Shown here piece after piece: positions 1,260 to 53,299 of a DNA stretch of 64,000 nt. Within the stretch, counting starts at the first letter, position 1; the number at the start of each line of letters is the position of its first letter. A program made the translations under genes and the position numbers. The notes below the pieces were generated by a model, which worked only from the letters and a program-made list of their open reading frames with translations, did not search any database and was not told the DNA's origin. Source of the stretch: Legionella beliardensis (lineage in GTDB: Bacteria > Pseudomonadota > Gammaproteobacteria > Legionellales > Legionellaceae); contig NZ_UGNV01000003.1 in assembly GCF_900452395.1 (NCBI RefSeq), positions 1-64,000 on the forward strand. The letters run 5' to 3'.

Positions 1260-1268
1260 TGCTATAAT
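1260..1268 (+). promoter_or_regulatory. Extended -10 promoter element before the candidate peptide gene
   Basis: TGCTATAAT matches an extended -10 (TGn plus a perfect TATAAT). Transcription would start near 1275, giving a leader of about 47 nt before the 1322 start codon. No good -35 hexamer is visible, which fits an extended -10 promoter. The 964-1259 gap otherwise holds no gene; a 16-bp AT-rich palindrome (AAAATAGCGCTATTTT) lies near 1052. The promoter is inferred only. Confidence 0.45.
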
Positions 1269-1321
1269 TATAAACAAGCAGATTAATATCTGCGACTTGT
1301 TAGTTTATTAGGAGTTTTATT

Positions 1322-1471
1322 ATGACTCAAAAAGCAAAGCAATCTAACCACGGCCAATCTAAAAAAAGACTTAACGCATCTCTCTCAGAGCAACGTTTAG
1401 CTTTTAAAGTTCCTTCTAATACTGTTAAAGATGGCGCAGACAAAATACCTACCGTCCAAGCACCAGCCTAA
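1322..1471 (+). CDS. Candidate RiPP precursor peptide, 49 residues
   Basis: Short peptide gene with AGGAG at 1310-1314 ahead of ATG. The product begins MTQKAKQSNHGQSKKRLNAS and ends KIPTVQAPA. It is basic and Gln/Ser-rich at the N-terminus and Pro/Val/Ala-rich at the C-terminus; it has no Cys, no membrane segment and no signal peptide. It sits 48 bp upstream of a peptide-modifying HExxH enzyme, followed by a methyltransferase and an exporter, which is the usual order of a RiPP operon. By inference it is the substrate. In related families hydroxylation falls on core residues; which residues would be modified here is unknown. It could instead be an unrelated small protein, but the ribosome-binding site and placement argue that it is translated. 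Confidence 0.65.
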   Translation: MTQKAKQSNHGQSKKRLNASLSEQRLAFKVPSNTVKDGADKIPTVQAPA

Positions 1472-1519
1472 TGGAAGCTGGAATTTAAATTACGGTTGTA
1501 ATCCTTAAAGGAATAAAAT

Positions 1520-2572
1520 GTGTCTACTAACCAAAAATTATTACGCACACTTCCAATAGAGCCTTTTATGGGTGAAACCCATGTAAAGGCTCTGCATTGT
1601 TATCTTAGAAAACGAACAAAGACGAGCTTTATGGAGCTTATTCTGGCAGCAGAAGAAGGGCTTACAGCAAATTTTGATGTTGTTATACAAAAGATAGACA
1701 GTTTGGATGTGAATAGGCGGTTGTCGCCACTACTCTATTTTTATTATTATTCCCTTCTGGAAGCGCTTTATAATCAAAATAAACGAGAGGTTGCTCGTTT
1801 ATGTCATTCATTAATTGAATTTGATAGTAATAATTTTTATACAAAACAATTATTACTTGATAATAATCAAATTAATCCCATTATCAAATACCAACAAAAT
1901 TATATTCAAACCTTATCTAATCGAATTGAAACCTTTGAGCCACTCTCACCCATTGAATTCGATTTAGCTAATAAACAAATTTCACAAGTTATTGATATTA
2001 TTGAAAAAACGAGTAAAAATTTGCATAGTGAGATTCAGGAAATTCTTGCTGTATTACATCTCTCAAAAGGAGTTTTTCTTGCCACAGCTGCAACAAGCTT
2101 AAAATATTTTGGCATGATTATCCTACGCTATAAAATGCTTCACTCAGCCCCACAGCAACTATTATATTTTTTTGACAGCATAGTACATGAAATATCCCAT
2201 GTTTTTTTAAATTTGTTAATGACCTTAGACCCAATAGTATTGAATTCTACTGAACTACATCACTCTCCGGCACGAAATGTTTTGCGACCTTTAAAGGGTA
2301 TCTTTCATGCGCATTTTGTCTTTTTTAGACTAATTGTTATGTATAAATTAGCAATAAATTATTTTATAGATGATGAAAGTAATAATTATGATAAAAATCA
2401 TGCAAATATAGCTATTCGAGACTTACCTTATATTTATCAAGACCGACTACAAGCATATCAAATTAAATTTAAACAAGGCGAAGAAATCCTTTTAAAGCAT
2501 GCAAAATTAACGAAATTTGGTAGAGCATTTTTATGCTCACTTAATCTGGAGAGCAAGGATGGCTTACTCTAA
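1520..2572 (+). CDS. HExxH-motif peptide-modifying enzyme (mod_HExxH/TIGR04267 type)
   Basis: Probable iron/2-oxoglutarate-type peptide hydroxylase acting on a ribosomal peptide. Seen: IVHEISHVFLNLL with HEISH at residues 223-227, followed by a HHSPARN segment, RPLKGIFHAH and FFRL. This order (HExxH, then a SPxR-like patch, then RPLxGxxH) is the signature of the HExxH family found in RiPP clusters. GTG at 1520 is chosen because AAAGGA lies just before it; the ATG two bases upstream is in another frame. It overlaps the next gene, implying one transcript. Chemistry is taken from studied family members; the residue modified here is unknown. Confidence 0.85.
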   Translation: MSTNQKLLRTLPIEPFMGETHVKALHCYLRKRTKTSFMELILAAEEGLTANFDVVIQKIDSLDVNRRLSPLLYFYYYSLLEALYNQNKREVARLCHSLIEFDSNNFYTKQLLLDNNQINPIIKYQQNYIQTLSNRIETFEPLSPIEFDLANKQISQVIDIIEKTSKNLHSEIQEILAVLHLSKGVFLATAATSLKYFGMIILRYKMLHSAPQQLLYFFDSIVHEISHVFLNLLMTLDPIVLNSTELHHSPARNVLRPLKGIFHAHFVFFRLIVMYKLAINYFIDDESNNYDKNHANIAIRDLPYIYQDRLQAYQIKFKQGEEILLKHAKLTKFGRAFLCSLNLESKDGLL

Positions 2573-3251
2573 ATTATCAATCCTTGAAAAAAAGCTTATT
2601 GAAAAAATAGTAAATTTAAAACCGAAAACACGTACTTTATTAGAAGTAGGTTGCGGCGATGGGAGGAAGTTAATTTATTTGCAAGCTAATTATCCCATCA
2701 AAGTTTCTGGTATTGATCTCTATGAGCCATATGTAGAAAAGCTACGTCAGCAAAATATTGATGCGAGCCTAGGCGATGCAAGGCATTTACCCTATGCTAA
2801 TGATAAGTTCAATTGGGTCTTAATTGCTAATTCGCTGCATCACATACCTGATCCGGAAAATGCATTATCAGAGGCTATCAGAGTTGCTAAAAACGGCGTC
2901 ATTGTTGTTGATCCTTGGTATGACAAAACAATTTATTCTCAACAACTTAGCGCTGAATTAGCAGCTTGGTGTAAAAAGCTGCATCAAAGCTTAGGTTATT
3001 TCCATCGAGAAGGGCTTAGTGCAGGTGAAATTATTAATGCAATTACCCGTGAAATTTCAAGCATTGAAATATACTATGAGCTTTTTATTAAAGAGTTAAA
3101 TCTTAAGGATTTTTTTAAAGTACAACAACAATATATAGCGCAGCTACAGGAAAATCATTATTTATTATGGGAATTAAACCAAATTAAAAGCCGAATCCAT
3201 GACAGTTTTATTAGTGAGCCAGGGCAAGTTATTGTCATTATTAGAAAATAA
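2559..3251 (+). CDS. Class I SAM-dependent methyltransferase
   Basis: Methyltransferase of the UbiE/type 11 kind. Seen: TLLEVGCGDGRKLIYL (motif I, SAM-binding glycines), GIDLYEPYVEKL (acidic end of strand 2), ASLGDARHLPYAND, and NWVLIANSLHHIPDPENAL (motif IV region). ATG at 2559 is preferred over an upstream TTG at 2517 because GGAG lies 8 nt before it; the gene then overlaps the HExxH gene by only 14 bp, suggesting translational coupling. By context it probably methylates the candidate peptide at 1322, but the substrate (N-terminus, side chain or a small molecule) cannot be read from sequence. Confidence 0.85.
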   Translation: MAYSKLSILEKKLIEKIVNLKPKTRTLLEVGCGDGRKLIYLQANYPIKVSGIDLYEPYVEKLRQQNIDASLGDARHLPYANDKFNWVLIANSLHHIPDPENALSEAIRVAKNGVIVVDPWYDKTIYSQQLSAELAAWCKKLHQSLGYFHREGLSAGEIINAITREISSIEIYYELFIKELNLKDFFKVQQQYIAQLQENHYLLWELNQIKSRIHDSFISEPGQVIVIIRK

Positions 3252-3284
3252 CTTATTTGTACATAATTATTAATATAAATTAAA

Positions 3285-4472
3285 ATGACTATCCTTACAT
3301 GGGCACCAAACAAATTAATTATCTTTGCTATTGCAAATGGGTTGGTTGCCCAATTTGCGATGGATATTTATATTCCCGCTATGCCTGCTATAGCTAAAGC
3401 TTTACACACGACAATTGACTATATTCAGCTTAGTTACTTCTATTTTATGTTAGGTTTTGGTTTATCTGTTTTTCTCTATGGATTTCTTAATAAAATAATA
3501 AATTATCGGTATATTTTTCTAATCTGTAATGGCGTATTTTTAATAGCTACTTTGTTGATTATTTTCTCTGCTGATATGGTTTATTTTTTAGCTCTGCGCT
3601 TCTTGCAAGGGATGGGCGCAGGATTTGGCTCTATGGCTATTATTATTACAATTATCTACCTTTTTTTTCCGCCCCGTAAATTAGGTATAATAATCTCTTA
3701 TAGCGTATTTTTTTTAACGCTTGCCAATATATTAGCGCCTGCAATAGGAGGTTATTTACAAGAACTTTATGGTTGGCAAAGTAGCTTCATATTTTTATTT
3801 ATATTATCTTTTTTACTATTAACCTCAGGCTATTGTTTCTTGCCAAAAATAATTACTCCCCCAAAAGTAAAAATTTCTTTTTATAGTAAAGTCAAAAATT
3901 TATTAGCAAATCAGCAATACATTACCCATGCGATATATGCGATTATTTGTGTGAATATTATTGTATGTTATTTAGTGATGAGTTCTTTTATCTTACAAAT
4001 GCACTTAGGCGCTTCTATTAAAGTCTCTGGCGCTATAGCATCTTTAATAAGTTTGTTATTTAGTATGGGCTCCTTATTAAATACCTTCATGCTTTCGAGG
4101 TATTTGCTAAAAACGACGATTTTTAGTGGCTTAATTATTAGCTTTCTAGGCATAGCTACCTTCTTAATTGCAGGTTACTTTACCGGTACGTCAATTTTCG
4201 CTTTCATTATACCTATATTTATTTCTTCATTAGGTTTAGGTATTTTATATCCTAATTTTGTTACCTGTGGATTCAAAGATTTTACGGGGTTTATTATAGA
4301 TGGTACTTCCTTGCTGAGCCTGATGAAAATTTTTACTATTTGTTTAATTACAGCTTTTATTGCATTCATTCCAGATAATTTTTTAACCTGTGCTTTATTA
4401 ACAGGGTTCCTGTTTAGTTTATTACTCGTATTAATTTTAATTTTAAATAGAGAATATTTAGTTAACTATTGA
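3285..4472 (+). CDS. MFS transporter, Bcr/CflA-like drug/peptide exporter
   Basis: Inner-membrane proton-driven exporter of the major facilitator superfamily. 395 residues with about 12 hydrophobic segments. RFLQGMGAG near residue 110 resembles the conserved motif on the fifth helix of drug-efflux members, and the N-terminal MDIYIPAMPAIAKAL is typical of the Bcr/CflA group. It starts 33 bp after the methyltransferase, so it is probably the last gene of the 1322-4472 operon and may export the modified peptide. A role in intrinsic drug efflux unrelated to the peptide is the alternative. Confidence 0.85.
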   Translation: MTILTWAPNKLIIFAIANGLVAQFAMDIYIPAMPAIAKALHTTIDYIQLSYFYFMLGFGLSVFLYGFLNKIINYRYIFLICNGVFLIATLLIIFSADMVYFLALRFLQGMGAGFGSMAIIITIIYLFFPPRKLGIIISYSVFFLTLANILAPAIGGYLQELYGWQSSFIFLFILSFLLLTSGYCFLPKIITPPKVKISFYSKVKNLLANQQYITHAIYAIICVNIIVCYLVMSSFILQMHLGASIKVSGAIASLISLLFSMGSLLNTFMLSRYLLKTTIFSGLIISFLGIATFLIAGYFTGTSIFAFIIPIFISSLGLGILYPNFVTCGFKDFTGFIIDGTSLLSLMKIFTICLITAFIAFIPDNFLTCALLTGFLFSLLLVLILILNREYLVNY

Positions 4473-4600: not shown

Positions 4601-5692
4601 ATGATAAGATGTTATATTCAAGCAGTAATGCTTATTTTTTTATCGCAATTGACCTTTTCTACTGCTTTAGCGTTCGAAGAATATGCCCCACCTTCACTAG
4701 CAGATTATCTCCATTTGTCTCACTCAAAAGACCCAGTAGACGGAGGCTGGCTTCCTAATCTTACAGGCTTGCCAGATGAGGAGCAAATTAGTCTATTAAC
4801 TGATCGCGTGTTTTACCTTGTAATAAACGAAAAAGATAGCCAATGCTCGTCAATAAGTCCTAATCTTAGGTTATTGATTTTTCAACATTTTGTTATTCAT
4901 CAATACATGGCCAATGTCCAAAATATTTATTTTGATGAGCAAGCTGCGCATCAATGGGCACATGTTTTGGCGATGATTCTTAAAGAAAGTAGTGGTGATT
5001 CCACGAGTATTACCGATATGCAAGGTCATTCGCTTTCCACTTATAAGGCGCAAACTAACTTAGGCAACTGGAAGCAAATATTAAGGCTTGCCAAACAAAA
5101 ATATATTCATTTTAACTATCAAACTAACTTTGGTTTGACCCAAATTTCAGCCGATAGATTATTTGATGCATTTCATTTAGCACGTAATAAATTCTATGAT
5201 ACTGCTTTTTTAGAAGGAAAAGAAGGTGCTGCAACTCCGAGGAAGGTAGATTTAAATACCGCCATTGCTATCCGTAGACTAATTTGGTTTTATCAAGATT
5301 TTGCGCAAGGCAGAATATCACAAGCACATGGGCGCCTTTATCAAGATGATATTATGGATCCTCTGTTTTTCGCTCAATATGAAGCAGGTTTAGAAAAAGC
5401 AGTTATCTATTGTGGAACACGCTTTATGTTTCAAGAAAGCCAACAAAAAAAAGGCTTATTAAAAAAGGCTGTTGCCTCTATTGCTTATTGTAAGCTTGGC
5501 AATTCAAACATGGGATATGGGTTTCATGAAATAGATCAAGAATGCTTTGCCGAGTGGGTAACTTTATGCCCGGCTTTAAATATTGATATTGCGCTCCTTA
5601 CACCGCTTAGTTATTTTGCTACTCGAGGAGAAAAACCCGTTTGCAAAGAAACCTTTAAGCAGCTAATTAATGAGAACCCCGTTGATAAATAG
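4601..5692 (+). CDS. Exported protein with a transglycosylase-like (SLT) core
   Basis: A signal peptide is evident: a basic start, a hydrophobic run to about residue 22, then ALAFEE. The mature part has AMILKESSGDSTSITD, where Glu-Ser-Ser-Gly matches the catalytic Glu segment of soluble lytic transglycosylases, followed by YQTNFGLTQIS, comparable with the GLMQI segment of the fold. This suggests a periplasmic enzyme cutting peptidoglycan glycan strands. Several Cys residues in the second half may form disulfides. The similarity covers two motifs only, so the enzyme call is tentative. ATG at 4601 directly precedes the signal sequence. Confidence 0.55.
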   Translation: MIRCYIQAVMLIFLSQLTFSTALAFEEYAPPSLADYLHLSHSKDPVDGGWLPNLTGLPDEEQISLLTDRVFYLVINEKDSQCSSISPNLRLLIFQHFVIHQYMANVQNIYFDEQAAHQWAHVLAMILKESSGDSTSITDMQGHSLSTYKAQTNLGNWKQILRLAKQKYIHFNYQTNFGLTQISADRLFDAFHLARNKFYDTAFLEGKEGAATPRKVDLNTAIAIRRLIWFYQDFAQGRISQAHGRLYQDDIMDPLFFAQYEAGLEKAVIYCGTRFMFQESQQKKGLLKKAVASIAYCKLGNSNMGYGFHEIDQECFAEWVTLCPALNIDIALLTPLSYFATRGEKPVCKETFKQLINENPVDK

Positions 5693-5858
5693 TGGCCCTT
5701 ATACTAAGCGCATAGAATGCTTAAATCGCATTTATCCACATTGAAATATAAATTATTTTATACTTGCTTCCGATGAAATTAAGCCTTTACAACGTATTTT
5801 ATATAAAAAGACTACTTCTGCTTATTATGAACATAACTTGAATAGTATATTTTCAAGT

Positions 5859-6117
5859 TCAGAGCATACATGAAGGAACTCTAAATCTTTGCTGTAAATC
5901 TTTTAGCTCCTCAAGTAATTTTCTTGCTCTAATGGTTTATGTATAAAAATACTATTAAAGAAAAGCTCATTTAACCCAGTTAAAGAAACTCTAGCTTTTG
6001 GATCATACTGTAAAGAAGTTTCCTCGCTAGGATAGAATCAAAAAGATTTAAATACTTTTTTAACGGTGTTCCTATATGAGATCTATGTTTGAGAGTAAAA
6101 GCCTTAATTAAGGGGGA
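5859..6117 (-). pseudogene. Remnant of the C-terminal lobe of a protein kinase
   Basis: No intact frame, but joined frames on the minus strand read LFDSILARKLL, then QYDPKARVSLTGLNELFF, then LLEELKDLQQRF. The second piece matches subdomain XI of eukaryotic-type Ser/Thr kinases (the DPxxR...S segment followed by a hydrophobic helix). At least two frameshifts separate the pieces and no N-lobe is visible. It is probably the tail of a decayed kinase effector. The rest of the 5693-6263 gap shows nothing convincing. Confidence 0.55.
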
Positions 6118-37146: not shown

Positions 37147-37719
37147 TTAACTTTCTCGTATTTTACGAGCCTGCTCTATGATTCGGCTTGATAGAGTAAA
37201 TTTCCACTTAGAATGTCTTCCTTTAGTAGCCCTAAAATCATCGAATACCTTTTTCTCTTTTAAACGAACACAAGTAGTTTTTATAGAGCCCATTGTAACT
37301 CCGACTATTTCACTGAATTCTCTTTTTTCAATGAAACCAGTAGAATCTGAGTTCGTAATTAGACAGCGTCTTAATATTTCATCAACAATTAATTTAGAGT
37401 TTCCGACCAAATCAATATAGTTAAATACAGGCTTTAATTTTCTCCCTACTCTGAAATTTTCATTATTAATGGGATGAATTATTTTTTGATCTAAGGATAA
37501 TTTCTTAGATCTTTTTGGTTTTTCAATATTACGCGAGGAGTTTTTTTTCTTTTTCTCACTTACAGTAGTAACTTTATTAACCTTTTCAATGTGATAAGGT
37601 CTAGGTGAATTTTTATCTCGTGTATATTCTTCAATAGATAAAGTAGAGGCTTTAAGCCTAGTAGGTTCTAAGCCTTTCTCGCGCTGCTTTTTTAATATAT
37701 CCTCTATCTTCATTCCCAT
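37147..37719 (-). CDS. Probable centromere-binding (ParB-like) partner of ParA
   Basis: 190 residues. The first 90 are basic and low in complexity (KKKKNSSRN, KPKRSKK); the C-terminal 100 look like a winged helix-turn-helix (LIVDEILRRCLITNSDSTGF, EIVGVTMGSIKTTCVRLKEK, RATKGRHSKWKFTLS). It follows parA by 17 bp on the same strand with AGGA before the ATG. No canonical ParB motif is seen, so the role is inferred from position. The repeat array at 38916-39882 is a natural candidate for its binding site. Confidence 0.6.
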   Translation of the reverse strand: MGMKIEDILKKQREKGLEPTRLKASTLSIEEYTRDKNSPRPYHIEKVNKVTTVSEKKKKNSSRNIEKPKRSKKLSLDQKIIHPINNENFRVGRKLKPVFNYIDLVGNSKLIVDEILRRCLITNSDSTGFIEKREFSEIVGVTMGSIKTTCVRLKEKKVFDDFRATKGRHSKWKFTLSSRIIEQARKIRES

Positions 37720-37736: not shown

Positions 37737-38744
37737 TTAAACAGCAGCAGCTTCTTTCTTCGATACTTCATTTTTTTTAGTTTTAGTCTCTAACCACGAA
37801 CTAATTCCGGTAATTTCTGAGATTAAACTCCAACAATCTTCTTTTGCAGTAGAATTTTTTAGATCAAATATATATTCACCATCAGCCTTAGTATTTTTAA
37901 AAGCGGTATTAGTTCTAACTACTATAGGTAATAAATTCTCTCTGAGTTCGTCCCTATTAGCTACTTCTCCCATAATAGTTAAGCTTAATTTCTCCCGCGC
38001 ATCATATTTATTAAAAATAATTTTATAATCTATTTCTATATTAAAATCTTTGAAAGACTCTTGAATTTGAATAATCTCTGATACAGACATTATTACCCCA
38101 TCAAAAGAATCAATATCTGCATTTAAAGGGATTAGATTGGTAGTTGCATAGCATGCTGCACAAGAAGTTATCTTATTTATTGAAGGTGGACAATCTAAAA
38201 TTATAAGATCGTAATTTTTTTCTAGTTCTGAAAATAAATTTTTAAAATATCCAGCAGCATTGATTGTTTGCGAGCCAAGAACCTGTTCTACTTGTGAATT
38301 ATCTAAAGAAGAGGGTAATAAATGAAGATAAGGGGTAACCTCTTTAATAATCTCACGTAGCTTTTTTTGTTTATTTAACACGTGCACTATAACAGGTTGT
38401 CCATGTTTCTTCATATTAAATGATTGAGTTAAATTTGCCTGCATGTCTAAATCTACAGCTAAAACACGAAAGCCCAATCTGCTAGCGCCTTCAGCTATTG
38501 CTGTAGCTAGTGAGGTTTTTCCAATTCCGCCCTTCATTCCAAAAATATTTATTATTGTTGGCCGTTTATTAGGTTTAAAATTAAATCCCCTTAATTCTAA
38601 AATTTCTCTAGCTGTTGACGCAGGTAAAACTTTTCTATTTGCTATAGGAATAACTTCTAAATCATTATCTTTAATTAATTTATAGATTAGATGTGGTGAA
38701 ACATTAATTATTGCAGAAAAATCCCTAGCGCTTATTGTTTTCAT
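37737..38744 (-). CDS. parA: ParA partition ATPase with N-terminal helix-turn-helix
   Basis: 335 residues. Residues 1-55 form a MerR/Xis-like helix-turn-helix (ISARDFSAIINVSPHLIYKL). The ATPase has the deviant Walker A FGMKGGIGKTSLA (71-77), LAVDLDMQANLTQS (A-prime) and DLIILDCPPSINKI (Walker B). The N-terminal DNA-binding domain is typical of type Ia plasmid ParA, which both moves plasmid copies over the nucleoid and represses its own promoter. It is transcribed away from the repeat array, with the ParB-like gene behind it. Confidence 0.9.
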   Translation of the reverse strand: MKTISARDFSAIINVSPHLIYKLIKDNDLEVIPIANRKVLPASTAREILELRGFNFKPNKRPTIINIFGMKGGIGKTSLATAIAEGASRLGFRVLAVDLDMQANLTQSFNMKKHGQPVIVHVLNKQKKLREIIKEVTPYLHLLPSSLDNSQVEQVLGSQTINAAGYFKNLFSELEKNYDLIILDCPPSINKITSCAACYATTNLIPLNADIDSFDGVIMSVSEIIQIQESFKDFNIEIDYKIIFNKYDAREKLSLTIMGEVANRDELRENLLPIVVRTNTAFKNTKADGEYIFDLKNSTAKEDCWSLISEITGISSWLETKTKKNEVSKKEAAAV

Positions 38745-50875: not shown

Positions 50876-53299
50876 ATGCGTTCTTCATTTAACTTTTTTG
50901 CCCACCTACCCGCTGATCCACCCTTACTTTTAATTTACTCAATACTGCCTGCCCAAGAGTTATATTTAAAGTGTCGCCTGCTAGATAAGCAACAGTCATT
51001 TCTCGCAACGCTTGCCTTATTGGAAAAGCAAGAGCAGGTGGCGGTTGTTTATCAACAACGATTACTCATGGATTTATTACAGTCGCAAACGCATCCGATA
51101 ATAACCACTGTTACTTTTTCAGCAGTCGCCCATAATCGTCTGTTAAATGCCTTATGGATGCTTATGAAAAATCCTTTCTGGGAACTGACAAGTAAACTCG
51201 CTGTCATACAACTAGTAGGTCAATTGAAAGGGCAAGCGTTTGTGTTAGCCAATAGCATGCTCGATGAGATTGAGACTAAATTAAGTAGCGAGCATTCCAA
51301 GGAAATTTGTCAAGGACTTCAATTATTAACTGTCTTGCTGCCTGGCTTTATTGCAACTGCCAAATTTGGTGCGCTGCTGCCAGCCGTGCAGGAGAAATTA
51401 GCGGATAATGATTGGGAGGTACGGGAAGCGGCGCTCAGGTGTTTAGCCCTACTTATTCCGTGCCTGTCGCCTAGGGAGGTGAGTGTGCTGCTGCCCGACG
51501 TGCAGTTGAAATTAGCGAATAATGATTGGAATGTCCGAGAAGCGGCGCTTAGGTGTTTAGCCCTACTTATCCCACACTTATCACCGAGCGAGGTGAGTGC
51601 ACTGCTACCCGACGTGCAGTTGAAATTAGCGGATAATATCTGGCAGGTACGAAAAGTGGCGCTCAATTGTTTAGCCCTACTTATCCCGCGCCTGTCACCT
51701 TGGGAGATGAGTGCGCTGCTGTCCGACGTGCAGGTGAAATTAGCGGATAATATTTGGTATGTCCGAGAAGCGGCGCTCAATTGTCTAGCCCTACTTATTC
51801 CGTGCCTGTCACCCAGCGAGGTGAGTGCGCTACTATCCGACGTGCAAGTGAAATTAGCAGATAATGATTGGAATGTCCGAGAAGCGGCGCTCAATTGTTT
51901 AGCCCCATTTATCCCGCGCCTGCCACCGCGAGAGGTGAGTGCGCTGCTACCCAATGTGCAGGTGAAATTAGCGGATGATATCTGGAAGGTACGGGAGGCG
52001 GCGCTCAGGTGTTTAGCCCTACTTATCCCGCGCCTGTCACCGCGAGAGGTGAGTGCGCTGCTGTCCGACGTGCAGGTGAAATTAGCGAATAATGATTTGG
52101 ATATACGAAAAGCGGCGCTCAATTGTTTAGCCCTACTTATCCCACACTTATCACCTAGTGAGGTGAATGCGCTGCTACCTGACGTGCAGGTGAAATTAGC
52201 GGATGATATCTGGAAGGTACGAAAAGCGGCGCTCAATTGTTTAGCCCTACTTATCCCGTGCCTGTCACCGCGAGAGGTGAGTGCGCTGCTGTCCGACGTG
52301 CAGGTGAAATTAGCGAATAATATCTGGGAGGTACGAGAAGCGGCGCTCAATTGTTTAGCCCTACTTATCCCGCGCCTGTCACCGCGAGAGGTAAGTGCGC
52401 TGCTGTCCGACGTGCAGGTGAAATTAGCGAATAGTATCTGGGAGGTACGAGAAGCGGCGCTCAATTGTTTAGCCCTACTTATTCCGCGCCTGTCACCGCG
52501 AGAGGTGAGTGCGCTGCTACCTGACGTGCAGGTGAAATTAGCGGATCATGATTGGAGGAGAAAACAAGCGGCGATCAGGTGTTTAGCCCTACTTATTCCG
52601 TGCCTGTCACCGAGAGAGGTAGGTGCGCTGCTACCCGACGTGCAGGTGAAATTAGCAGATCATGGTTGGGAGGTACGAGAAGTGGCGCTCAATTGTTTAG
52701 CCCTACTTATCCCGTGCCTGTCACCCAGCGAGGTGAGTGCGCTACTACCCGACATGCAGGTGAAATTAGCGGATCATGATTTGGCAGTACGAAAAGCGGC
52801 GCTCAGGTGTTTAGTCCTACTTATCCCGCGCCTGCCACCCAAGGAGGTGAGTGCGCTGCTATCCGACGTGCAGATGAAATTAGCGGACAACGATTTGAGG
52901 GTAGGACAAGCGGCGCTCAACTGTTTATCTGTCCTTATCCCCCGGATGTCACCAAGCGAGGTAAGGCAGTTGCTTCCAGTGATTAAGGAAAGATTGACAG
53001 ATACCAACACCGCTATTTATGAAGCGGCTGGTCTGTGTTTAATTACCCTAGTTCCTAAGCTCACTTATGCTGAGCAACATAAATTTATCAGGGAAGAGGG
53101 AGTGTCTTTAGTGAATACTTATCCTAAGTTATTTTATCAATTGATTAATGGGTTAATCAGCCAAGCTAGGAAAAAGGACAGGTTACAGCTTTTACAATTG
53201 GCATCAGAAAGTGACCTGTTTCTGCAAACCTTTGTAACCAATTATAAGATGTTGTTAATCGAACAATTACCTTCTACTAACTTACAGTCTAATCCTTAA
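50876..53299 (+). CDS. HEAT-repeat protein with F-box-like N-terminus
   Basis: 807 residues. Residues 8-45 (FAHLPADPPLLLIYSILPAQ, ELYLKCRLLDKQ) follow the F-box pattern of a Leu-Pro start, an Ile...Leu core and a Cys-Arg-Leu end. About 166-735 hold 15 tandem 38-residue HEAT-like units (A-L-L-P-D-V-Q-x-K-L-A-D ... V-R-E-A-A-L-x-C-L-A-L-L-I-P ... S-P-x-E-V-S), the last one diverged. Such solenoids bind partner proteins, so an adaptor that recruits a host target to a ubiquitin ligase is possible. The repeats are GC-richer than the surroundings. No signal peptide. Confidence 0.75.
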   Translation: MRSSFNFFAHLPADPPLLLIYSILPAQELYLKCRLLDKQQSFLATLALLEKQEQVAVVYQQRLLMDLLQSQTHPIITTVTFSAVAHNRLLNALWMLMKNPFWELTSKLAVIQLVGQLKGQAFVLANSMLDEIETKLSSEHSKEICQGLQLLTVLLPGFIATAKFGALLPAVQEKLADNDWEVREAALRCLALLIPCLSPREVSVLLPDVQLKLANNDWNVREAALRCLALLIPHLSPSEVSALLPDVQLKLADNIWQVRKVALNCLALLIPRLSPWEMSALLSDVQVKLADNIWYVREAALNCLALLIPCLSPSEVSALLSDVQVKLADNDWNVREAALNCLAPFIPRLPPREVSALLPNVQVKLADDIWKVREAALRCLALLIPRLSPREVSALLSDVQVKLANNDLDIRKAALNCLALLIPHLSPSEVNALLPDVQVKLADDIWKVRKAALNCLALLIPCLSPREVSALLSDVQVKLANNIWEVREAALNCLALLIPRLSPREVSALLSDVQVKLANSIWEVREAALNCLALLIPRLSPREVSALLPDVQVKLADHDWRRKQAAIRCLALLIPCLSPREVGALLPDVQVKLADHGWEVREVALNCLALLIPCLSPSEVSALLPDMQVKLADHDLAVRKAALRCLVLLIPRLPPKEVSALLSDVQMKLADNDLRVGQAALNCLSVLIPRMSPSEVRQLLPVIKERLTDTNTAIYEAAGLCLITLVPKLTYAEQHKFIREEGVSLVNTYPKLFYQLINGLISQARKKDRLQLLQLASESDLFLQTFVTNYKMLLIEQLPSTNLQSNP
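51371..53080. repeat. 15 tandem 114-bp repeats encoding HEAT units
   Basis: Near-identical 114-bp units (38 codons), e.g. GTGCAGGTGAAATTAGCG and TGTTTAGCCCTACTTATCCC recurring in every copy. Similarity at synonymous sites suggests recent expansion or gene conversion. The strong repetition also leaves a 381-codon shadow frame on the other strand. Confidence 0.9.

What the first reader, a model, noticed from the sequence alone, without database searches (positions are those of the whole stretch)
1260..4472. Compact RiPP-like cluster: peptide, HExxH modifier, methyltransferase, exporter
A 49-codon gene with its own ribosome-binding site lies directly before an enzyme bearing the HExxH plus RPLxGxxH signature of RiPP-associated peptide hydroxylases. 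A methyltransferase overlapping that gene and an MFS exporter follow. The four-gene order is that of a minimal peptide natural-product operon, and the peptide has no cysteine, so it is not a lanthipeptide or sactipeptide precursor. I know of no described product with this gene set from Legionella-like bacteria.
Basis: partly seen in the sequence, partly recalled or inferred. Interest (0 to 1): 0.9.

Follow-up and report, generated by a model that had tools for sequence, protein, structure and literature searches.

The report
Small peptide-modifying gene cassette in Legionella kin
A bacterium of the Legionella family carries a compact four-gene cassette that most likely makes, oxidises, methylates and exports a small ribosomal peptide; the chemistry is inferred, not yet shown.

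The parts
1263..1268 (+). TATAAT, probable -10 box of the cassette promoter
   Evidence: Invariant in the 4-copy DNA alignment and at -59 to -61 from the peptide start in 4 of 4 copies; a consensus match only
1322..1471 (+). Precursor peptide gene, 49 aa; conserved C-terminal half FKVPSNTVKDGADKIPTVQAPA
   Evidence: Conserved in 4 genomes (5 copies), dN/dS 0.083, RBS AGGAG
1520..2572 (+). aKG-HExxH-type peptide oxygenase, 350 aa, GTG start
2559..3251 (+). Class I SAM methyltransferase, 230 aa, overlaps the HExxH gene by 14 bases
   Evidence: Methyltransf_11 62 bits; strong homologues in 4 of 143 family genomes, all beside the HExxH gene; best PDB sequence match LahSB 6uak, SAM domain only
3285..4472 (+). 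MFS transporter, 395 aa, probable exporter of the product
   Evidence: MFS_1 106.8 bits; TIGR00710 Bcr/CflA 102 bits, below its cut-off of 200.9; strong homologues in the same 4 of 143 genomes

Best explanation
A compact RiPP cassette. SHOWN by sequence and model: a conserved ribosomal peptide gene, an enzyme with the fold and motif of the alpha-ketoglutarate/Fe-dependent HExxH oxygenases, a cassette-specific class I methyltransferase and a cassette-specific MFS transporter. INFERRED: the HExxH enzyme recognises the conserved F-x-x-[VI]-P-x-x-x-V region of the peptide and oxidises the conserved C-terminal part V-x-D-G-x-D-x-x-x-T-V-Q-A-P-A. The favoured sites are residues already known as targets of this enzyme family: Asp37/Asp40 or Gln46 (beta-hydroxylation), or Ala47 directly after Gln46 (alpha-hydroxylation with oxidative cleavage, which would leave a Gln-amide). 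The methyltransferase then methylates an oxygen of the peptide (the C-terminal carboxylate, the Asp of the invariant Asp-Gly, or a new hydroxyl), and the MFS protein exports the trimmed small product. The protease that removes the rest of the peptide is not in the cassette.
For: Peptide under purifying selection with the C-terminal 23 residues frozen between the same-genus pair. A conserved peptide next to the HExxH gene in 11 of 11 class I and class II loci; I named the classes after seeing the peptides, and the enzyme tree then showed each class as one group (support 96/96 and 100/99). Strong methyltransferase and MFS matches confined to the same 4 of 143 genomes: methyltransferase E 1.9e-153 to 7.2e-60, next best 3.5e-12; MFS 2.9e-244 to 4.3e-62, next best 4.2e-30. 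Fold and sequence of ChlH. Literature on relatives: ChlBH on Asp/His and PosC/PflC on Gln plus cleavage at the Ala after Gln (PMC12636437: abstract, outline and sections 4, 6, 11, 13); PesO on Pro, with the list of known targets His, Asp, Phe, Gln (PMC13060819 passages). A biphenomycin cluster pairs an aKG-HExxH hydroxylase with an MFS transporter (PMC12707348 passages). In class I all 5 peptides hold D-G and T-V-Q; 0 of 7 class II peptides hold D-G or V-Q-[AT], and no relative of the cassette's methyltransferase lies in the 13-kb stretches around the class II loci.
Against: No chemistry was or could be shown. Six more HExxH loci of the family have no conserved peptide that I could find, so the enzyme family alone does not imply a peptide substrate. 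In the whole-genome search the peptide itself is strong only in the same-genus pair (E 1.9e-27 and 6.1e-20); at the other two class I loci it is weak (about 0.04), and one match elsewhere scores better (G131:C24, 0.021), so its homology there rests on position and. One of the two L. nautarum peptides ends T-V-Q-T-A-A, so Ala47 and Pro48 are not invariant. The methyltransferase's match to the peptide methyltransferase LahSB covers only the generic SAM-binding domain. The exporter gene is inverted in 2 of 4 copies. Peptide profiles of class I and II align at the expected place but not significantly (hhalign probability 0.8%, E 0.07). No protease or recognition-element gene was recognised in the cassette.
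Confidence: 0.8

Rival explanations
1. The HExxH protein works as a zinc-type peptidase that cuts the small peptide (a peptide-plus-peptidase pair), rather than as an oxygenase.
Confidence: 0.08
2. The peptide is an unrelated small protein or a regulatory leader peptide that merely precedes the enzyme operon.
For: Peptide N-termini differ strongly between the two class I pairs; a 20-66 base gap separates the peptide and the enzyme gene in class I; six other HExxH loci lack a conserved peptide.
Against: Own RBS and protein-level constraint; tandem duplication of the peptide alone in L. nautarum; a peptide at the same place in 7 of 7 class II loci, which stand in at least four different gene surroundings (L021-L023, L024-L025, L026, L027; judged by eye).
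Confidence: 0.1
3. The methyltransferase makes an aspartimide/isoaspartate at the invariant Asp-Gly, as PIMT-type enzymes do in imiditides, and the HExxH enzyme hydroxylates elsewhere.
For: D-G invariant in 5 of 5 class I peptides and absent from 7 of 7 class II peptides, whose 13-kb surroundings hold no relative of this methyltransferase; the characterised graspimiditides all have Gly after the methylated Asp (PMC13001092 passages).
Against: The methyltransferase hits Methyltransf_11-type families; no PIMT/PCMT family is among its 11 Pfam hits, and the WXXXGXP motif of RiPP PIMTs is not in the translated sequence (by eye).
Confidence: 0.15
4. The methyltransferase and the transporter belong to a separate small-molecule detoxification pair that has become linked by chance.
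For: Such families are common in these genomes (matches at E <= 0.001 in 110 of 143 genomes for the methyltransferase, and 137 of 143 for the MFS protein); the transporter gene is inverted in 2 of 4 copies.
Against: The cassette-specific forms occur only beside this HExxH gene, in 4 of 4 cases, in three different gene surroundings (window; L018; L019 and L020; by eye).
Confidence: 0.07

Closest known systems
ChlH / ChlBH HExxH domain (PDB 8s5f), aKG-dependent beta-hydroxylase of cyclophane RiPPs
   Different: [quoted passage not shown] here the enzyme stands alone and no radical SAM gene is in the cassette
pfl/pos clusters of Pseudomonas (PflC, PosC)
   Same: A precursor peptide, a stand-alone HEXXH enzyme and transporters; a Gln followed by Ala near the peptide's C-terminus (4 of 5 class I peptides)
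   Different: The Pseudomonas cluster has a nitrile-hydratase-like leader, an acetyltransferase, an MNIO-nitroreductase fusion and QQQQ-ARMD (PMC12636437 section 6); here a 46-49 aa peptide without ARMD, plus a methyltransferase and an MFS protein
Nitrilobacillin (pes) and biphenomycin (bip/bpm) clusters
   Same: An aKG-HExxH hydroxylase tailors a ribosomal peptide; the bip cluster also has an MFS transporter
   Different: There it works beside MNIO, rSAM or Asn-synthetase-like enzymes; here it is the only recognised oxidising enzyme
LahSB C-terminal carboxyl methyltransferase (PDB 6uak)
   Same: Best solved-structure sequence match of the methyltransferase (E 4e-11 with profile A4; E 1.2e-10 with P0003)
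   Different: Match limited to the SAM domain (residues 18-118); the conserved C-terminal half (WCKxLHQxLGxxHR) is unmatched
Imiditides / pamtides (PIMT-modified RiPPs)
   Same: Short precursor next to a methyltransferase; a conserved Asp-Gly as at the characterised graspimiditide sites
   Different: The methyltransferase is not of the PIMT family

Membership tests
aKG-HExxH-type peptide beta-hydroxylase (TIGR04267) | Score above the curated family cut-off | tested here: met
   54.6 bits vs cut-off 40; match covers profile positions 52-125 of 177
aKG-HExxH-type peptide beta-hydroxylase (TIGR04267) | HExxH and downstream RP motif | tested here: met
   H223, E224, H227, R256, P257 invariant in 16 of 16 aligned relatives; truncated L033 was left out of the alignment
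aKG-HExxH-type peptide beta-hydroxylase (TIGR04267) | Fold of the ChlH HExxH domain | tested here: met
   [not shown]
aKG-HExxH-type peptide beta-hydroxylase (TIGR04267) | Fe(II)/2-oxoglutarate-dependent oxidation of a peptide | not testable with these tools
   Needs a biochemical assay
RiPP biosynthetic cluster | Genetically encoded, conserved precursor beside modifying enzymes | tested here: met
   4 of 4 class I loci (5 peptides), 7 of 7 class II loci; not found at 6 class III loci
RiPP biosynthetic cluster | Leader/core division with a removal site | tested here: inconclusive
   The N-terminal 26 residues vary and the C-terminal 23 are fixed between window and L018; no recognised leader family (no hit at E <= 1 for P0001 in Pfam or NCBIfam); no protease gene recognised in the cassette
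PosC/PflC-type oxidative amidation | Ala (or Gly) directly after Gln near the C-terminus | tested here: inconclusive
   Q-A in 4 of 5 class I peptides, Q-T in one; no ARMD motif. Ala to Val, Ser or Gln abolished cleavage in PosA; Gly gave partial cleavage (PMC12636437 section 11)
LahSB-type C-terminal carboxyl methyltransferase | Similarity over the whole enzyme | tested here: inconclusive
   Only the SAM domain matches; a structure prediction could not be queued
PIMT-type aspartimide-forming methyltransferase (imiditides, pamtides) | Homology to PIMT | tested here: not met
   No PIMT/PCMT family among the 11 Pfam hits at E <= 1
Bcr/CflA efflux transporter (TIGR00710) | Score above the curated cut-off | tested here: not met
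   102 bits vs 200.9; MFS_1 membership is met (106.8 vs 33.4)

The most novel reading that the evidence does not exclude
Legionella-family bacteria hold an unreported RiPP class whose defining enzyme is the stand-alone aKG-HExxH oxygenase. It comes as a two-gene minimal form (class II) and a four-gene form (class I). In class I the enzyme oxidises the conserved Q-A junction and releases a small Gln-amide peptide, which the cassette's own methyltransferase finishes (perhaps at the invariant Asp-Gly) and the MFS protein exports.
Probability: 0.2. Interest if true: 0.72.

Novelty: new variant of a known kind. Interest (0 to 1): 0.52.

Why it matters
In the papers seen here, aKG-HExxH enzymes work beside other oxidising enzymes in larger clusters; PMC13060819 (passages) counts them among enzyme families not regarded as class-defining and says their reactions cannot yet be predicted. 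A cassette in which this enzyme is the only recognised oxidising enzyme on a peptide of 46-61 residues would be a clean system for learning its substrate rules, and the class I/class II pair offers a natural comparison with and without the methyltransferase. It would also add a peptide product to a bacterial family whose small-molecule repertoire is, to my knowledge (recalled), thinly described.

Tried and rejected
Whether the 49-codon frame is a chance ORF: rejected. PIMT-type imiditide membership: not met, kept as a mechanistic rival only. Lanthipeptide or sactipeptide: no cysteine in the window copy and no synthetase among the family hits of the four genes. Plasmid records: one distant hit (Pantoea agglomerans, 28.7% over 35% of the query). 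Class-wide samples: HExxH profile A1 matched 7 of 369 genomes including the window's own; methyltransferase profile A4 matched 2 of 369 at E <= 1e-15, the second (G145) over the SAM domain only. Homology of class I and II peptides: suggestive, not significant. A structure model of the methyltransferase was wanted but never queued. In the VIA-align list no other oxygenase family stood out; absence there proves nothing. The PDB profile search also listed 7 unrelated sequences at E 0.007-0.11. The Nat Chem 2024 paper on ChlBH is not held and is known here only through other papers' text. Partial or stop-bearing HExxH pieces in G052, G068, G047, G136 and G127 were not used; L033 (G052, 134 aa) was dropped from the alignment and the tree. 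For the class II peptide of L025 I took an inner ATG (57 aa) rather than the longest frame (69 aa), to match its relatives.
Full report
WHAT IS THERE. The window is G000:C3:1-64000, the first 64 kb of a 79,330-base contig of a 3.54 Mb, 6-contig genome. At 1322-1471 lies a 49-codon frame with AGGAG 5' of its ATG. It is followed by the HExxH gene (1520-2572), a methyltransferase gene that overlaps it by 14 bases (2559-3251) and an MFS gene (3285-4472), all on the + strand.

THE PEPTIDE IS A GENE. blastp of the frame against all frames of 25 aa or more in the neighbourhoods of the HExxH relatives finds it in three other genomes: L018 (E 4.6e-24), L020 (5.0e-6) and L019 (5.8e-6), each time just before the HExxH gene. 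L019 has two tandem copies. Against L018, dN/dS is 0.083 (9 non-synonymous differences over 111.8 sites, 18 synonymous over 32.2). The change is one-sided: residues 1-26 hold all 9 altered codons (8 substitutions and one deletion), whereas residues 27-49 have none, yet 10 codons there changed synonymously. Invariant across the five class I peptides are M1, F28, P31, V35, D37, G38, D40, T44, V45, Q46 and A49. A TATAAT box stands at -59 to -61 in 4 of 4 copies.

THREE KINDS OF HExxH LOCI IN THE FAMILY. With P0002, 16 of 143 family genomes have a match (17 loci); with profile A2, 20 of 143, some of these partial. Class I (4 loci: the window, L018, L019, L020) has peptide, HExxH, methyltransferase and MFS. 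Class II (7 loci: L021-L027) has a 57-61 aa peptide of another sequence family directly 5' of the HExxH gene (gap -1 to 8 bases). No relative of the cassette's methyltransferase or MFS protein was found in the 13-kb stretches there, and the long-frame neighbours vary except among near relatives (by eye). Class III (6 loci: L028-L033, one truncated) showed no conserved small peptide: the only matches among small frames within 3 kb were frames opposite or inside conserved longer genes (judged by position). That test compares loci with each other, so it has power for L028, L031 and L032 and little for L029, L030 and L033. Over the whole chain class III is 18-24% identical to the window protein (five rows) and class II 22-26%, so class II is not much closer by that measure. 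In the tree, class I (96/96) and class II (100/99) are each one group and 4 of 5 class III rows stand apart (100/100), while L030, a long branch, is unsure. I named the classes from the neighbourhoods before building the tree. G104 carries one locus of class I and one of class II.

THE CASSETTE IS A UNIT. In the same 143 genomes the methyltransferase has four strong matches (E 1.9e-153, 1.1e-123, 1.8e-64, 7.2e-60), all at the class I loci; the next is 3.5e-12, and 110 genomes have some match at E <= 0.001. The MFS protein likewise (2.9e-244, 1.1e-155, 5.5e-63, 4.3e-62; next 4.2e-30; 137 genomes with some match). The peptide is less clear by whole-genome search: E 1.9e-27 and 6.1e-20 for the same-genus pair, about 0.04 at the other two class I loci, and 8 matches elsewhere at 0.021 to 0.87, one of them better than those two; there the case rests on position and. 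Gene surroundings differ between the window, L018 and the L019/L020 pair (by eye), so the four genes travel or persist together. In L019 and L020 the MFS gene is convergent to the others, so co-transcription is not general.

HOW IT MOST LIKELY WORKS. Enzymes of this family are reported to hydroxylate Asp and His (ChlBH), Gln (PosC/PflC, also Asn in variants), Pro (PesO) and Phe; PosC also removes a C-terminal tetrapeptide by oxidation at the Ala that follows Gln, leaving an amide, while Val, Ser or Gln at that place is not cleaved (PMC12636437 abstract and sections 4, 6, 11, 13; PMC13060819 passages). The class I peptides end in T-V-Q-A-P-A in 4 of 5 cases and T-V-Q-T-A-A in one, so both Gln oxidation and cleavage at Ala are open; D37 and D40 are invariant too. 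The methyltransferase's best solved relative is LahSB, which methylates the C-terminal carboxylate of peptides (PMC11285071 passages), but the match is confined to the SAM domain. D-G is present in 5 of 5 class I peptides and in 0 of 7 class II peptides, which keeps an aspartimide-type reaction in play, although the enzyme is not of the PIMT family. Export by the MFS protein is inferred; a biphenomycin cluster offers a precedent (PMC12707348 passages). All chemistry here is inference.

WHAT IS NEW. In the papers seen, HExxH enzymes work beside rSAM, MNIO or other enzymes. Here the HExxH enzyme is the only recognised oxidising enzyme, and in class II the only neighbour of the peptide that I saw conserved in all 7 loci. 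On print: the search listings (long lists were cut, for example 20 of 996) and the passages opened showed no such cluster from Legionella; 'Legionella' does not occur in the main text of four of the HExxH papers (PMC12636437, PMC13060819, PMC12257519, PMC7726476). They did show a graspetide cluster of L. pneumophila (PMC9576775, one passage) and bufferin genes (PMC12452194 passages). The library lacks most subscription journals. I file it as a new variant of a known kind.

Noticed in passing
window 37737-38744, 37147-37719 and 64-963; C3 74141-79185 (L034): Contig C3 may be a circular plasmid: a ParA-like ATPase gene lies mid-contig (AAA_31), and genes that look by eye like prenyl synthase, HMG-CoA synthase, HMG-CoA reductase and UPP synthase (not run against families) end the contig, while a mevalonate-kinase-like gene starts it (TIGR00549 108.7 bits, below its cut-off of 163.05). 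No end overlap was found. The genome has a second, 39% identical copy on contig C1 and a 51-residue piece on C5.
   Followed up: partly
window 50876-53299 (+): 807-aa HEAT-repeat protein with GC 48.5% against 34% for the window, and a long antisense frame that repeats itself.
   Followed up: no
L021-L027 (class II loci): Two-gene unit of a 57-61 aa peptide (KFFKNIPEGLLQDTLPTMR-like) plus HExxH enzyme; possibly a minimal system.
   Followed up: partly
L066 5482-5685, L067 5351-5500, L069 about 5057-5296, L070 (reverse-complemented) 5796-5927, L071 4342-4452: In 5 of 7 HExxH loci fetched from other Gammaproteobacteria a small frame with an LDxxKLLGF-like start lies before the enzyme gene (seen by eye); the one in L069 repeats GAKIGKAP. 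L068 is cut by the contig end; in L072 I saw none of this kind.
   Followed up: no
window 1278-1293: Inverted repeat GCAGATATTAATCTGC (minus-strand reading) between the -10 box and the RBS of the peptide gene; an operator or a weak terminator (3 terminator-like sites in the region against a mean of 1.7, sd 1.5, in shuffles).
   Followed up: no
L028, L031, L032: Class III HExxH genes follow a permease-like gene (by eye) in all three loci, without a conserved peptide; a different role is possible.
   Followed up: no
L053 (G068) and L052 (G052): Partial HExxH pieces, one with a stop inside the match; probably decayed copies; only described.
   Followed up: no
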